Shown piece after piece: positions 1-4,766 of a stretch of DNA of 64,000 nt. The DNA comes from Parasedimentitalea maritima (lineage in GTDB: Bacteria > Pseudomonadota > Alphaproteobacteria > Rhodobacterales > Rhodobacteraceae), in the NCBI RefSeq assembly GCF_005771405.1, contig NZ_VAUA01000004.1, positions 248,001-312,000 on the forward strand. The letters are read 5' to 3'. Both the position numbers and the translations under genes were made by a program. The notes under the pieces are model-generated. The model made no database searches and was not told the origin of the DNA. It was given only the letters and a program-made list of their open reading frames with translations. Positions within the stretch are counted from its first letter, which is position 1, and every line of letters starts with the position of its first letter.

Positions 1-1341
1 CAGGACTTGGCCTCTGGTGGCGACGTCCCACCGTGTCGGTCACGAACGGCTAAGGCATTGTTCCAGCTGGAGAAAAATAAGTGGAACGGCGCCTGCACTG
101 CGATCACCACCAAACGGGCGATGGCGCAGGCAGTTGAAACAGACGCACGGGAGATGAGGGGGGAACCACTTGGGCCACTGGCTGGCTTTCATGTGGTTTG
201 GAAAGACATTTTTGATCAGGCAGGTGAAGTAACCACCTGTGGGTCAGCATTGCGACGGGATGCGCCGCGCTCAAAGCAAGATGCTCGTAGTGTACAGCAG
301 ATTGAGGCCGCAGGTGCGGTGTCACTTGCGCGTACAGGTCTTTCTGAACTTGCCTTTTCGGGGCTGGGCATCAACCCGCATTTTGGCACCCCTCCTTCTG
401 CTCTGTCGACCTCGAAGCCGTTGGTGCCGGGGGGGTCCACGTCGGGCGCAGCTGTGCTTGTCGCCCATGGGCTTGCTGATTTGGGTATGGGGACTGATAC
501 ATCGGGCTCCATACGGATACCTGCAGCGCTGAATGGCATCCTAGGGTTTCGGCCAAGCTCAAGCCGCTATAGTAAAATCGGCGTACACGAGCTTTCACAG
601 ACGCTTGACACTGTTGGCACCCTCTCTCGCTCGTTCGACCTGCTGCTGGCGGCTGACCGGGTATTGGCTAGCCCAGCTCTGGCGACCAAGGTCTACGAGA
701 AGGCTGTGATCTTAGACCTATCGGATACGTTGGGGCCAACGTGGTCACCGGAAGTTTTCCACGCTTATGATGAGGCCCTAAAATGTGCTTCAAATGCTGG
801 ATGGCGCATTCAGATTGGGCGGTTGCAATCTGTCGATGACCTACATGCGCTGCTAAAGGCTGAAGGCCCGCTTGTTGCGATCGAAGCTCGGCGGAAATAC
901 TCAGGTTTGTTGTCTGGATCCGAGTCTGATCGAATTGATCCAATGATCCGCGCACGGTTGTCTCAGGCTCCAGTGCTCACGGATGCCCGGATTGCAAAGT
1001 ACATAGATAAAAGATCACAGCTGGTAGCAAAGTCGCGGTCTGAAATCGGCAACAGGCTTGTCGCCTTTCCCACAGTTCCATCTCTGCGTCACGACCTTGC
1101 CACCTATCAATATGATCTGAAAGCAGCGCAGGCGTTGAATGCTCGGTTGCTGGCCGCAACCATGGTTGGCAGCCTTCTGGATTGGCCCGGGCTAGCGGTA
1201 CCCCTGCGAAATGCAGAGGAGCGCGTCCAAGGGTCGTTCCTGCTTTCTGCAGCATCTGGAAACGATGGACTTTTGCTGGATCAAGCAAAGCACATCATTC
1301 CGCAAATCACACACTTACCCCAATCAAAACGAGGAAAATGA
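1..1341 (+). CDS. Amidase signature family hydrolase (5' partial)
   Basis: Amidase signature enzyme, hydrolysing a carboxamide to acid and ammonia. The Ser-cisSer-Lys triad is visible, numbering from the TTG at base 7: Lys66 in VWKDIF, the GGSTSG loop near 142-147, and nucleophile Ser168 in [11 protein letters not shown]. The frame is open to base 1, and the usual N-terminal helix before the EPLGPLAG segment looks short, so the true start is probably outside the window. The TGA ends one base before the next ATG, so it is co-transcribed with the deacetylase-like gene. Substrate unknown; AtzE/AtzF-like amidases and GatA-like paralogues belong to the same superfamily. Family call is secure, specificity is not. 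Confidence 0.85.
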
Positions 1342-1342
1342 T

Positions 1343-2221
1343 ATGACAAAAGAAATTTTGGTCGCTTATGGCGTTGATGTAGATGCCGTAGCGGGTTGGC
1401 TTGGTTCTTATGGCGGAGAAGACTCTCCTGATGACATCTCACGTGGTATGTTTGCCGGGGAGGTCGGTGCGCCCCGGTTGCTAAAACTCTTTGAGAAATA
1501 CGACCTTAAGACCACCTGGTTCATTCCCGGTCACTCGATGGAGACTTTCCCTGATGAAATGGCCGCAGTTGCAAAGGCCGGACATGAGATCGGTATCCAC
1601 GGTTATTCTCATGAAAATCCTATCGCCATGACAAGAGAACAGGAAATGGCGATCCTTGATAAATCAATTGAGTTGGCCACCAAACTGAGTGGCAAACGCC
1701 CGACTGGTTACGTTGCGCCGTGGTGGGAGTTTTCAAATGTTACCAACGAGCTATTGTTGGAACGTGGTATCAAATATGACCATTCTCTGATGCACAACGA
1801 TTTTCACCCATACCGCGTGCGGGTTGGCGACAGCTGGACCAAAATCGACTACTCGCAGCATCCTGACACGTGGATGAAACCACTCGAGCGTGGCGAGGAA
1901 ACTGACCTGATTGAGATCCCAGCGAATTGGTATCTGGACGATCTGCCACCCATGATGTTCATCAAGAAATCCCCTAACAGCCATGGCTTCGTCAACCCGC
2001 GCGATATCGAACAGATGTGGAAGGATCAGTTCGATTATGTCTACCGCGAGAATGACCATGCCGTCTTTACGATGACGATCCATCCGGATGTATCTGGCCG
2101 TCCGCAGGTCCTGATGATGCACGAACGTCTGATCGAGTACATCAACAGCCACGAAGGTGTGCGCTGGGCCACATTTGACGAAATCGCAGACGACTATAAC
2201 GCACGTGCACCACGCGGCTAA
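1343..2221 (+). CDS. Polysaccharide-deacetylase-fold hydrolase, HP0310/PgdA-like
   Basis: A 292-residue NodB-fold metal hydrolase. The start at 1343 follows an AGGA site and lies one base after the amidase stop; the longer upstream frame only overlaps the amidase. From memory it resembles H. pylori HP0310 (PgdA) over its whole length, including the N-terminal [20 protein letters not shown] segment, the HGYSHENP metal motif, APWWEFSN and TIHPD. HP0310-type proteins are atypical deacetylases whose closest structural relatives include cyclic imidases and allantoinase-like PuuE. With an amidase upstream and a CobW protein downstream, hydrolysis of a small cyclic imide or amide is a better inference than cell-wall modification. 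No signal peptide, so cytoplasmic. Confidence 0.85.
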
Positions 2222-2276
2222 GGGAAGCGAAGGGCAGGATCAGTTTTGGTCCTGCCTATCAGGCAAGGAGAACCAA

Positions 2277-2594
2277 ATGTGCGGCTTATGTGGGATTTTT
2301 GGAAGTGATGACCATTGGAGTGCGGCTAGTCTGACCCTGAGTGCATCCGCTGATCCTGTCGGCAGGCGTCGTGACAGGAATGCACGCATATCTGCTGTAA
2401 ATCAGATGCTGTCCCGGCAGCGCATTCAACTGTCTGATTGGCAAGGGCAAAGCTACGTCTTGCGTGGGCCTACGGGCCAACAGAGCATAGTGAGCAATGT
2501 CACTGAAGTCTGGGCCAGCCTTGAGGATGATTTTGGCAAAAAGTTTGACCCGCTGGATGTGGCTAACTTCCCGTCGGAAGGGCCAAGCACATGA
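2277..2594 (+). CDS. Small MCGLCG-start protein, unknown function
   Basis: A 105-residue protein with a good AAGGAG site 6 bases before ATG 2277. Its first residues, MCGLCGIFG, copy the N-terminus of class II (Ntn) glutamine amidotransferases, where Cys2 becomes the nucleophile. At 105 residues it is far too short for a glutaminase domain (about 200 residues) and I see none of the downstream glutaminase motifs. The rest carries a basic RRRDRN stretch and a segment RIQLSDWQGQSYVLRGPTG that could form a small beta domain. Its TGA overlaps the cobW-like ATG (ATGA), so the two are translationally coupled. It may be an accessory subunit or metal-binding partner; function unknown. Confidence 0.75.
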   Translation: MCGLCGIFGSDDHWSAASLTLSASADPVGRRRDRNARISAVNQMLSRQRIQLSDWQGQSYVLRGPTGQQSIVSNVTEVWASLEDDFGKKFDPLDVANFPSEGPST

Positions 2595-3553
2595 CGCGCC
2601 AAGCGCCAATTCCCATCATTCTGTTGACGGGTTTCTTGGGGGCAGGGAAAACGACATGGCTGTCGCGAGCTTTAAGGCATGAGAGTGCGGGTCGGACGGC
2701 TGTGTTGGTTAATGAATTCGGAGAGGTCGGGATCGACCATCTGTTGGTGGGCACTATTGCGCCCGACACAGTGTTGTTGAACTCCGGATGCATCTGCTGC
2801 CAAATTCGAGGAGAGTTGAAAGACGCAATTTTGGATGTGATCACCCGTGCTAAACGCGGTGAGATTCCAACATTTGAGAAAATCGTTATCGAAACCACCG
2901 GCCTTGCTGACCCTTCTCAAATTCTGTCGACGCTGATGTTTGATCCGGTGCTGCATAACCAAGTGTCCTTACAGCATGTTGTGACAGTTGCTGACGCTCA
3001 AAACGGAGCAACTATTCATTCAGCGCAACCTGAATGGGTCGGCCAAATCGCTGCGGCAAGTGTCCTCTTGCTGACAAAAGCCGATTTGGTGTCTTCGTCC
3101 AAATTGCAAGCTTTGCGGATGCGGTTGGCGCTGGTAAATCCAACTGCTGAACAGCTCGTCGCACAGGATTGCCCCGGTTTTCGCGATATTGATGGCACTG
3201 GGGACAGTCATCTGCCTACAGTCAATTTTGATAGATCTAGTCAACACCAGGACGGCACTGGCGCGCAGACCTTAAGTTTAACATTGGAGAGGCCAATGGA
3301 CTGGGTGAAGTTTATCGTTTGGCTATCTGCGCTTATTCATCGTCACGGTGCAAAGCTTCTGCGCGTTAAGTGCCTGTTGAATACTGAAGAGACAGGCCCA
3401 GTGTTGATTGACGGCGTCGGGCATACGCTTCACCATCCTCGCCACCTTGACAGTGAAGTTGCATCCGACGAGAAGTCACGCCTCGTGTTTATTGCCCGCG
3501 ATCTCGATATGACGCAACTTCGCTTGTCTTTTGAGAAATTTGTAGGAACGTGA
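2591..3553 (+). CDS. CobW/COG0523 family metallochaperone GTPase
   Basis: A 320-residue G3E-family GTPase. The P-loop GFLGAGKTT spans residues 14-22, NEFG 41-44, the metal-binding GCICC motif 66-70 (Cys67, 69, 70), and a TKAD base-recognition motif lies near 160. A C-terminal CobW domain covers roughly 235-318. COG0523 proteins deliver Zn, Fe or Co to partner metalloenzymes using GTP hydrolysis. Coupling to the MCGLCG gene by ATGA and proximity to the NodB-fold hydrolase suggest it metallates the pathway enzyme (inference). No Zur-type operator was recognised. Confidence 0.9.
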   Translation: MTRQAPIPIILLTGFLGAGKTTWLSRALRHESAGRTAVLVNEFGEVGIDHLLVGTIAPDTVLLNSGCICCQIRGELKDAILDVITRAKRGEIPTFEKIVIETTGLADPSQILSTLMFDPVLHNQVSLQHVVTVADAQNGATIHSAQPEWVGQIAAASVLLLTKADLVSSSKLQALRMRLALVNPTAEQLVAQDCPGFRDIDGTGDSHLPTVNFDRSSQHQDGTGAQTLSLTLERPMDWVKFIVWLSALIHRHGAKLLRVKCLLNTEETGPVLIDGVGHTLHHPRHLDSEVASDEKSRLVFIARDLDMTQLRLSFEKFVGT

Positions 3554-3581: not shown

Positions 3582-4766
3582 ATGCCGGATTCGCTGAAAA
3601 CTCCATCCGTTCACACCAAGACACCCAAATTGCGTGTACTTGGGACTGACGTTACGCTGATTGGTGCGCTCAAAAATGCTGCTGAAGCCGATTTAGGAAT
3701 TCATTTGGAATTTACTGTGTTGGATGGAATTCAAGCACAACGCAGGGGCGTTTTGGCACCTGAAACTTTTGATATCTACGATCAATGGTTCCACGATTTG
3801 GATCAGGTCTGGCCGGCGAGATCACTCAAGCCCATCGATATTGACCGCATCCTCATTTGGGATGAACTGCAGGCTTGGCCCGTTTTGAACGAACAACATG
3901 TGTCTGGAACTCTCAGCGGCACCCCATTTAGCCGTCTCTATGTGCAAGACAGCGGCGAGCTATCGTGTCAGGCCACTGGACAAATCTCGATGCTGCCGAC
4001 CGTATACAATGCAGACAGTTTTGCGGTCATCGGGGACACGTCAGAACCTGAGCCAAATAGCTGGGCCGATTTGCTATCAGATCGCTGGAGTGGACGAGTT
4101 GCCATTCAGGCTGACGCCGCTATTGGGGTTCCTGATCTCTTGATGGCATTGCGCGCGCAAAATGAATATTCCTGTAGCGATCCTGGAAATCTGAGTTTGC
4201 GCGAAATCGAGTCTTTCATTCGGTTGGTTAAACAATATCAACTATCAAATCATTTCCTGGGATTTTGGAATGATAATCCCCCGAGCACCAACGGTACCGC
4301 TACACTGTCCACAATGTGGTGGTCCAATTACCTTTCGCAAAAAGCAAAGGGCACTTCTATCCGAATGTGTACTCCAACAGAGGGGTATCGCGGTTGGTGC
4401 GGCGGAATGGCTTTATCGCAGCACGTGGATCAACGAACGGAAGAGCTGGCCTATGCCTATATGAACTGGTGGTTGACTGGGCCGGCCGGGGCCATCATGG
4501 CACGAAACGGGGCTTACATGGCAGCTGCGAGCGCGACACGCTCACATCTTACAGCAAACGAATGGGACTTTTGGTACGATGGAAAACCCTCTGTTGCGGA
4601 TATTTTGGACCCCTTCGGAAATGTGGTTTACCGTCCAGGTGAACTTCGTGAAGGCGGCAGCTGTGAGAACCGGCAAAAGCAAATCGTGATATGGAATTCA
4701 GTGATGGATGAGCATAATTTTCTCGTCCGACTTTGGAACGTGATCACTGAACGTGCATTGGTCTAA
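3582..4766 (+). CDS. Extracellular-solute-binding-like protein without signal peptide
   Basis: A 394-residue protein with the pattern of a type II periplasmic binding protein (PotD/iron-binding type): an N-terminal KLRVLGTDVTL strand, PTVYNADSFAV, SWADLLSDRWSGRVAI, and a C-terminal ALVYN-like EELAYAYMNWWLTGPAGA segment. The start has an AAGGA site (3572-3576). The N-terminus (MPDSLKTPSVHTKTPK) has no hydrophobic core, no lipobox and no twin arginine, so it would stay in the cytoplasm. No ABC permease or ATPase gene follows; the next gene is convergent and overlaps its stop. It may bind the pathway substrate inside the cell or a transporter may be encoded upstream of the window. Confidence 0.7.
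   Translation: MPDSLKTPSVHTKTPKLRVLGTDVTLIGALKNAAEADLGIHLEFTVLDGIQAQRRGVLAPETFDIYDQWFHDLDQVWPARSLKPIDIDRILIWDELQAWPVLNEQHVSGTLSGTPFSRLYVQDSGELSCQATGQISMLPTVYNADSFAVIGDTSEPEPNSWADLLSDRWSGRVAIQADAAIGVPDLLMALRAQNEYSCSDPGNLSLREIESFIRLVKQYQLSNHFLGFWNDNPPSTNGTATLSTMWWSNYLSQKAKGTSIRMCTPTEGYRGWCGGMALSQHVDQRTEELAYAYMNWWLTGPAGAIMARNGAYMAAASATRSHLTANEWDFWYDGKPSVADILDPFGNVVYRPGELREGGSCENRQKQIVIWNSVMDEHNFLVRLWNVITERALV

What the first reader, a model, noticed from the sequence alone, without database searches (positions are those of the whole stretch)
2277..2594. Miniature protein copying the MCG start of class II amidotransferases, coupled to a CobW GTPase
The sequence begins MCGLCGIFG, which in glutamine amidotransferases exposes a catalytic N-terminal cysteine, yet the protein is only 105 residues and has no further glutaminase motif. 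It is translationally coupled (ATGA) to a COG0523 metallochaperone and lies after an amidase and a NodB-fold hydrolase. It could be an unrecognised metal-delivery partner, with Cys2 and Cys5 as ligands, or a small N-terminal-nucleophile enzyme.
Basis: partly seen in the sequence, partly recalled or inferred. Interest (0 to 1): 0.7.

Follow-up and report, generated by a model that had tools for sequence, protein, structure and literature searches.

The report
Small N-terminal-cysteine partner of CobW GTPase
A small bacterial protein that begins Met-Cys-x-x-Cys is encoded, with few exceptions, next to a metal-handling GTPase and a metal-dependent ring-opening hydrolase, so it may be an unrecognised helper that loads metal into that hydrolase.

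Summary
The 105-residue ORF (2277-2594, ATGA overlap with the CobW gene) is a real, widespread, unnamed family. No Pfam or NCBIfam model fits and no glutaminase domain is present. In 121 distinct homologues Cys2, Cys5 and Trp14 are invariant, and a start codon always stands directly before Cys2. The gene lies in a cassette: NodB-fold hydrolase, small protein, COG0523 GTPase. CobW follows in 79 of 80 loci (the 80th contig ends) and NodB precedes in 77 of 80. In a class sample all 21 genomes with this NodB clade (>=59% identity) have the small protein. NodB is 77% identical to H. pylori HP0310 ('PgdA'), whose metal site is buried; a fungal relative of that enzyme is a published cyclic imide hydrolase working before an amidase, as the window's gene order suggests. 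Best reading: the small protein is an accessory metal-transfer adaptor with an N-terminal CxxC arm that helps the GTPase metallate the imide hydrolase. Main rival: a NodB subunit. The Ntn-enzyme idea is not supported. Linkage and conservation are shown; metal binding, contacts and substrate are inferred, and relatives that work without known helpers speak against strict need.

The parts
1..1341 (+). Amidase-signature enzyme; its ORF starts 57 bases upstream of the window (GTG at L039:9944)
   Evidence: PF01425 2.7e-48; ORF
1343..2221 (+). NodB-fold metal hydrolase, 77% identical to H. pylori HP0310; D12, D14, H86, H90, W127, H247 present; probable cyclic imide hydrolase
2265..2270 (+). AAGGAG ribosome-binding site of the small gene
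   Evidence: read directly
2277..2594 (+). Small MCxxC protein, 105 aa: N-terminal CxxC arm plus predicted helix-three strands-helix core and D91-P92-L93 motif
2277..2291 (+). Met1-Cys2-Gly-Leu-Cys5: proposed metal hook, exposed after removal of Met1 (inferred)
   Evidence: C2 and C5 121 of 121; start codon directly before C2 121 of 121
2591..3553 (+). COG0523/CobW GTPase (Walker A GFLGAGKT, GCICC metal motif), ATGA overlap with the small gene
   Evidence: PF02492 4e-41, PF07683 5.8e-16; CxCC in 183 of 183 linked CobW segments, duplicates included
3582..4766 (+). Solute-binding-protein-fold protein with no signal peptide seen (probably cytoplasmic), next gene downstream of CobW
   Evidence: PF13343 5.7e-07; leader judged by eye

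Best explanation
The small protein is the third component of a cassette NodB-small-CobW and serves metallation of the NodB-type cyclic imide hydrolase. Shown: its gene is almost inseparable from the COG0523 GTPase gene and from one clade of NodB-fold hydrolases, and its only strictly fixed cysteines stand at residues 2 and 5, right behind the start. Inferred: methionine aminopeptidase removes Met1 (Cys is a permitted second residue; general knowledge), leaving an N-terminal Cys-x-x-Cys arm whose two thiolates, perhaps with the alpha-amine and the nearly invariant His13, hold a divalent metal (most likely Zn2+). The folded core docks the GTPase and/or the hydrolase. On GTP hydrolysis the metal passes from the CxCC loop of the GTPase, through or with the help of this arm, into the buried Asp14/His86/His90 site of NodB, which lies behind Trp127 and a tetramer arm. 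NodB then opens a cyclic imide (imported in this operon by the Mhp1-like NCS1 permease) to a half-amide, and the amidase hydrolyses that. The helper may matter mainly when metal is scarce.
For: CobW directly follows small in 79 of 80 genome-contig loci (contig ends in the 80th); NodB directly precedes in 77 of 80. All 9 of the 101 genomes (own included) with this NodB at E<=1e-60 have small beside it. In the class sample all 21 genomes with NodB >=59% identity have small, against 1 of 9 with only ~40% NodB. In Klebsiella variicola, Pantoea and Mesorhizobium the NodB (84, 84 and 72% identical to the window's) is several genes away while small-CobW stay adjacent. C2, C5, W14 121 of 121; start codon at residue 1 in 121 of 121; in 71 no other in-frame start precedes it. 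Metal ligands kept in 103 linked NodBs (D14 102 and one gap, H86 and H90 103). HP0310 Discussion: ion possibly zinc, access blocked by Trp127 and a neighbouring subunit. Function: Aspergillus HxnM, published cyclic imide hydrolase, has HP0310 as closest structural homologue, is 64.2% identical to a P. putida cyclic imide hydrolase homologue, and precedes the amide hydrolase HxnN (PMC9304392, section 12 read, passages). The window operon's permease has Mhp1 hydantoin permease as best solved relative (1.6e-58); G017 has a D-hydantoinase/dihydropyrimidinase next to the cassette (575.6 bits over cut-off 393.25), Sulfitobacter and Skermanella annotated ones. Precedent: ZNG1 passes Zn to MetAP1 from its CxCC loop (passages of PMC10642216).
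Against: No metal binding or contact was tested. His13 is not strict (112 of 121), so further ligands are open. Clade members seem able to work without the helper: recombinant HP0310, made in E. coli, held an ion, and HxnM acts in a fungus, where the text names no such partner and does not mention metal (fungal genomes not searched). HP0310 was, however, inactive on every compound tried, allantoin included (section 9), and a crude-extract peptidoglycan deacetylase activity is on record for it, against the small-ring reading. L047 and L053 have small and NodB but no CobW found; L049/L124 have small and CobW with an amidase where NodB would be; a Rhizobium plasmid has the NodB without small or CobW annotated nearby, though another plasmid of that strain has a small gene. 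A tight operon is also what a subunit of NodB would show.
Confidence: 0.46

Rival explanations
1. The small protein is a stable subunit of the NodB hydrolase (a lid, specificity or assembly subunit), and the GTPase serves the complex; the N-terminal cysteines form a structural or catalytic site in the holoenzyme.
For: NodB directly precedes it in 77 of 80 loci and the NodB clade is co-inherited with it in 21 of 21 genomes; two second-copy loci keep NodB and small but no CobW was found (L047, L053). HP0310 alone was inactive on all compounds tried, as if something were missing.
Against: Small stays adjacent to CobW, not to NodB, where the operon is broken up; small evolves faster than NodB (74% against 95.5% identity, window against Leisingera); HP0310 is a tetramer alone; HxnM works in a fungus without a named partner.
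Confidence: 0.25
2. The small protein is itself the client of the GTPase: a metalloprotein (redox or sensing) of the pathway, not needed to metallate NodB.
For: Tightest pairing is small-CobW (79 of 79 informative loci); NodB-clade enzymes appear to hold metal or work without it elsewhere; CxxC at a free N-terminus is a typical metal or redox motif (general knowledge).
Against: Near-obligate co-inheritance with one NodB clade would need another explanation; no confident fold match.
Confidence: 0.16
3. Miniature N-terminal-nucleophile amidohydrolase related to class II glutamine amidotransferases.
For: The start MCGLCGIFG resembles that of GATases; one of 28 members gives an asparagine-synthase hint at E 0.25.
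Against: Gly3 varies to Ser/Ala/Asn/Val, Cys5 is invariant, no GATase family match, whole proteins only 90-124 aa, predicted helix-three strands-helix core.
Confidence: 0.03
4. Partner of the leaderless solute-binding-fold protein or of the amidase rather than of NodB or CobW.
For: Both are in the same operon in the window, Leisingera and rhizobia; in L049/L124 an amidase takes NodB's place.
Against: 44 of 80 genome-contig loci show neither an amidase nor a solute-binding hit (E<=1e-5) on the stretch held; the annotated cassettes L149 and L152 show neither.
Confidence: 0.05

Closest known systems
COG0523 GTPase-client pairs: Fe-type nitrile hydratase activator (Nha3/P47K), ZNG1-MetAP1, CobW
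   Same: COG0523 GTPase with CxCC motif paired with one metalloenzyme
   Different: A third, small N-terminal-CxxC protein stands between client and GTPase genes; none is described in what I saw of PMC2770081 (passages, section 5 part 1) and PMC10642216 (passages)
G3E maturation sets with separate metal carriers (HypA or SlyD with HypB; UreE with UreG)
   Same: GTPase plus an accessory protein serving one enzyme (UreE and SlyD roles in PMC2770081)
   Different: No sequence or fold relation was found; the metal is unknown; the HypA comparison is recalled
H. pylori HP0310 (HpPgdA; PDB 3qbu, 4ly4) with HP0309, HP0311, HP0312
   Same: HP0310 is identical to the window NodB at 223 of 291 residues, W127, E129, W165 and W177 included; HP0312 is a COG0523 protein; HP0311 is 'hypothetical' and HP0309 an N-carbamoyl-D-amino-acid amidohydrolase
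Cyclic imide hydrolases: Aspergillus HxnM, P. putida imidase (AAY98498)
   Same: Same HP0310-like enzyme type, followed by an amide hydrolase (HxnN) as the window's NodB is accompanied by an amidase (PMC9304392)
   Different: No partner protein or GTPase is named there; I could not compare their sequences with the window directly; substrate of the window enzyme unknown
PuuE allantoinase
   Same: Same superfamily, tetramer, small cyclic substrate
   Different: The HP0310 paper contrasts PuuE with metal-binding HP0310; window NodB scores far below the PuuE model cut-off (85.8 against 424.6 bits)

Membership tests
Class II glutamine amidotransferase (Ntn) | Match to a GATase/Ntn family model | tested here: not met
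   No GATase family in Pfam for 28 members; NCBIfam asparagine synthase B, one member, E 0.25
Class II glutamine amidotransferase (Ntn) | N-terminal Cys after Met removal | not testable with these tools
   Cys2 invariant; processing needs mass spectrometry
Class II glutamine amidotransferase (Ntn) | Four-layer alpha-beta-beta-alpha domain of ~200 residues (recalled) | tested here: not met
   105 aa; both AF2 models give one long helix, three strands and a second helix, moderate confidence
COG0523 GTPase (neighbour CobW) | CobW GTPase and C-terminal domains, Walker A, CxCC | tested here: met
   PF02492 141 bits, PF07683 58.6 bits; CxCC in 183 of 183 linked segments, duplicates included
COG0523 subfamilies with NCBIfam models (YjiA-type PRK11537, CobW, ZigA) | Score over the equivalog cut-off | tested here: not met
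   145.7 of 361, 101.5 of 332.1, 90.9 of 600 bits
Polysaccharide deacetylase / NodB superfamily | PF01522 match and Asp-His-His metal triad | tested here: met
   63.2 bits over 23.1; D14, H86, H90
PuuE allantoinase | TIGR03212 over cut-off | tested here: not met
   85.8 bits, cut-off 424.6
HP0310-type NodB clade | High identity and clade residues W127 and W177 (E129 and W165 less strictly) | tested here: met
   223 of 291 identical; W127 and W177 in 103 of 103 linked and in none of the nine ~40% unlinked sequences; E129 and W165 each in one of those nine
Cyclic imide hydrolase | Hydrolysis of cyclic imides | not testable with these tools
   Published for the relative HxnM; here only relationship and operon context
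Zinc-binding accessory protein | Metal binding by CxxC | not testable with these tools
   Conserved CxxC; three of 28 members give a weak zinc-finger hint, HVO_0649, best E 0.019

The most novel reading that the evidence does not exclude
A new kind of metal-transfer protein: an 'N-terminal hook' (free Cys1 amine and thiolate plus Cys4 thiolate after Met excision) that exists to receive metal from a COG0523 GTPase and thread it into an enzyme whose metal site is sealed by a Trp lid and a tetramer arm; the same trio would operate in H. pylori (HP0310-HP0311-HP0312), making 'PgdA' a GTPase-matured cyclic imide hydrolase rather than an ordinary peptidoglycan deacetylase.
Probability: 0.26. Interest if true: 0.82.

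Novelty: new variant of a known kind. Interest (0 to 1): 0.62.

Why it matters
Many COG0523 GTPases have no known client (general knowledge). This cassette points to a likely client, one NodB clade, and to a dedicated helper for which no family model exists, with clear residues to test. It also suggests one reading for a gene set shared by rhizobia, roseobacters, Klebsiella and Pantoea plasmids, Rubrobacter and, by published gene order, H. pylori, where the enzyme was inactive on every compound its structural paper tried.

Tried and rejected
Tried and rejected. (1) GATase relationship by Pfam, NCBIfam and a PDB profile search: nothing significant. (2) Fold search of two AF2 models against PDB: no match at E<=0.001 for either; weak small helix-strands-helix look-alikes such as a chain of a HicAB complex (6g26_F), 1whz and 5yrz_B (TMt 0.43-0.51) are noted only. 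(3) Natural fusions of small with NodB or CobW: none seen among the ORF hits; not searched further. (4) CobW tree: the first two tries mislabelled the CobW of L198, which is linked but separated by an extra ORF; with L198 left out of the paralogues, three own-genome paralogues (L201, L202, L205) fall together with no linked CobW among them, support 0.92. Two other own-genome matches were not in the tree (L204 gave no hit to my motif; L206 was not tried), so this is weak. (5) Prior description: ten searches showed no account of the small protein in what I opened. HP0311 is only a 'hypothetical protein' in lists: absent from H. cetorum, variably present on an array, and among ANN/SVM predictions of type III secretion signals. 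Papers listed but not opened: those, PMC9863593, PMC11165448, PMC6801745 and all but one. PMC3084791 used HP0310 and HP0312 as anchors for a gene-context figure that I could not see. (6) HP0311 sequence: none of the collections I could still search was a route to an H. pylori chromosome; no direct search for it was made.

Limits. The genome-contig scan used the pattern MC[GSA]LCGVLG, so 80 loci (of 119 matches) were selected for that start; 37 of the 121 distinct proteins do not fit the pattern and all 37 begin MCxxC (L024 and L180 are a whole and a cut copy of one gene). Several genome-contig loci appear to be the same contigs as G-handle loci, so the surveys overlap. One search scored at most 12 candidates per genome, so its 10 of 398 (own included) is a lower bound. 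Absence of small was judged at E<=1e-3 by one protein query, which missed G017 until its locus was read.

Full report
What is there. The ORF at 2277-2594 (+) encodes 105 residues beginning MCGLCGIFG. AAGGAG stands six bases before the ATG, and the stop overlaps the ATG of the next gene as ATGA. The next gene is a COG0523/CobW GTPase (PF02492, PF07683; GCICC motif), followed by a solute-binding-protein-fold gene (PF13343). Upstream lie a NodB-fold hydrolase (PF01522) and an amidase (PF01425). Beyond the window's left edge are an NCS1 permease and a divergent GntR-FCD regulator. The best solved relative of the permease is the hydantoin permease Mhp1 (E 1.6e-58); in NCBIfam it matches NCS1 and then allantoin permease models, all below their cut-offs. 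Leisingera methylohalidivorans has the same seven-gene order (GntR, NCS1, amidase, NodB, small, CobW, solute-binding protein), with identities 63% (amidase), 95.5% (NodB), 74% (small), 69% (CobW) and 71% (solute-binding protein). The small gene is under purifying selection there (pN/pS 0.24, synonymous sites saturated).

How far it goes. Homologues were found in 8 of 101 genomes, own included, with one more (G017) recovered from its locus; in 24 of 385 class genomes, own included, of which G140 is probably chance; in at least 10 of 398 phylum genomes, own included; and in 65 plasmid records at E<=1e-3, among them Klebsiella, Halomonas, Paraburkholderia and the actinomycete Rubrobacter. A genome-contig scan gave 119 matching stretches, of which 80 loci were kept.

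What is conserved. Among 121 distinct homologues (37 of them not fitting the scan pattern), Cys2, Cys5 and Trp14 are present in 121, Arg34 in 120, His13 in 112, and Gly67, Trp79, Asp91 and Pro92 in 120, the one gap being a locus-edge fragment. The codon at residue 1 is a start codon in 121 of 121 (116 ATG, 5 GTG), and in 71 of 121 there is no other in-frame ATG, GTG or TTG after the upstream stop. So Cys2 really is the second residue in those, and an N-terminal extension seems not to be tolerated. Further cysteines are not conserved (28 proteins have none). AF2 models of the window protein (pLDDT 70, pTM 0.56) and of relative L063 (pLDDT 78, pTM 0.68) agree on a long helix, three strands and a second helix; residues 1-4 and 6-22 of the window model and 1-3 of the other lie below pLDDT 50. 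No PDB fold matches at E<=0.001. The picture is a compact core with an N-terminal CxxC arm of uncertain structure.

The cassette. In the 80 genome-contig loci CobW starts right after small in 79 (the contig of the 80th, L105, ends there), and NodB ends right before it in 77; the exceptions are L119, L120 and L124. L047 and L053 (second copies in genomes that also have a full cassette) show no CobW and have NodB on the other strand, L054 has NodB on the other strand, L049 has an amidase where NodB would be, and L059 (G140) shows none of the genes. This NodB at E<=1e-60 occurs in 9 of 101 genomes, and all 9 have small beside it. In the class sample 30 of 385 genomes have a NodB match at E<=1e-50: all 21 with >=59% identity have small, and of the 9 with only ~40% NodB one (G373) does. 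In Klebsiella variicola, Pantoea At-9b and Mesorhizobium B2-1-1 the NodB (84, 84 and 72% identical to the window's) is several genes away, yet small and CobW remain neighbours. The other catabolic genes change: amidase (window, rhizobia), asparaginase (Thioclava, Skermanella, Rubrobacter), dihydropyrimidinase, N-carbamoyl-D-amino-acid hydrolase and hydantoinase A/B (Sulfitobacter), D-hydantoinase (G017). NodB is the catalytic gene that mostly stays, which makes it the likeliest client.

The NodB enzyme. It is identical to H. pylori HP0310 at 223 of 291 residues. Metal and catalytic residues D12, D14, H86, H90 and H247 are kept in 103 linked sequences except for three His and one gap at 12 and one gap at 14. 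W127 and W177 mark the linked clade: 103 of 103, and none of nine unlinked ~40% relatives; the tenth unlinked sequence, L208 at 81% identity, belongs to the clade. The HP0310 paper (section 9, Discussion and passages) describes an ion, possibly zinc, shut off by Trp127 and a neighbouring subunit's arm, no signal peptide, no activity on N-acetyl sugars, acetylated polyamines, dipeptides or allantoin, and PuuE allantoinase as a close relative; it also recalls a deacetylase activity on crude peptidoglycan. PMC9304392 (section 12 and passages) concludes from gene deletion and metabolites that the Aspergillus enzyme HxnM opens a cyclic imide (3-hydroxypiperidine-2,6-dione), and states that its closest structural homologue is HP0310, that it is 64.2% identical to a P. 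putida cyclic imide hydrolase homologue, and that the amide hydrolase HxnN acts next. NodB plus amidase in the window looks like the same pair.

H. pylori. HP0312 is a COG0523 protein (passage and section 5 of PMC2770081). HP0309, HP0311 and HP0312 are listed together as absent from H. cetorum, as N-carbamoyl-D-amino-acid amidohydrolase, hypothetical and ATP-binding protein (table passage of PMC3866246); HP0310 is not named in that paper's main text, so co-loss of all four is not shown. HP0311 as a member of the family is a prediction from gene order; I did not obtain its sequence.

How it most likely works. A sealed metal site may need help to be filled. COG0523 GTPases do this for other enzymes; ZNG1 offers its CxCC loop to MetAP1 (passages of PMC10642216). 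Here a small protein with a fixed N-terminal CxxC is encoded between GTPase and enzyme. I infer that it carries or guides the metal, with Met1 removed. Carrier, adaptor or NodB subunit cannot be told apart by sequence; the small-CobW pairing in broken-up operons and the faster evolution of small beside a nearly frozen NodB favour an accessory over a subunit.

Against. No binding was measured; His13 is not strict; HP0310 made in E. coli held an ion; HxnM acts in a fungus with no partner named, so the helper is perhaps needed only under metal limitation or not for NodB at all; a Rhizobium plasmid keeps the NodB with an asparaginase and no cassette annotated nearby, though another plasmid of that strain carries a small gene (CP021372).

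Novelty. No Pfam or NCBIfam family covers the small protein, and the papers opened from ten searches gave no account of it. The gene context of HP0310 and HP0312 was at least looked at in 2011 (legend of Figure S1 in PMC3084791). I rate it a new variant of a known kind, interest 0.62.

Noticed in passing
window 3582-4766: Solute-binding-protein-fold protein without a visible signal peptide after CobW; 23 of 24 post-CobW relatives also look leaderless by eye (L119 only a 73-aa remnant; L125 has a Tat-like leader), while other binding proteins in the same loci mostly have one. No predictor was run.
   Followed up: partly
window 2233-2256: Seven-base perfect inverted repeat (GGCAGGA...TCCTGCC) between NodB stop and small start, no T run; may set the ratio of NodB to small/CobW mRNA. 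Read by eye.
   Followed up: no
L208 (Rhizobium sp. ACO-34A plasmid CP021373): Cassette-type NodB next to an asparaginase without small or CobW annotated nearby, though another plasmid of the strain has a small gene; action in trans is possible.
   Followed up: partly
L047 and L053: Second, divergent small genes (MCAFC start) beside a NodB on the other strand, with no CobW found on the fetched stretch.
   Followed up: no
   Followed up: no
L144 18486-21348: Second Leisingera cluster: urea-carboxylase-associated protein, distant NodB-fold protein (27% to window NodB) and amidase with an ABC transporter annotated for polyamines, without small or CobW annotated.
   Followed up: partly
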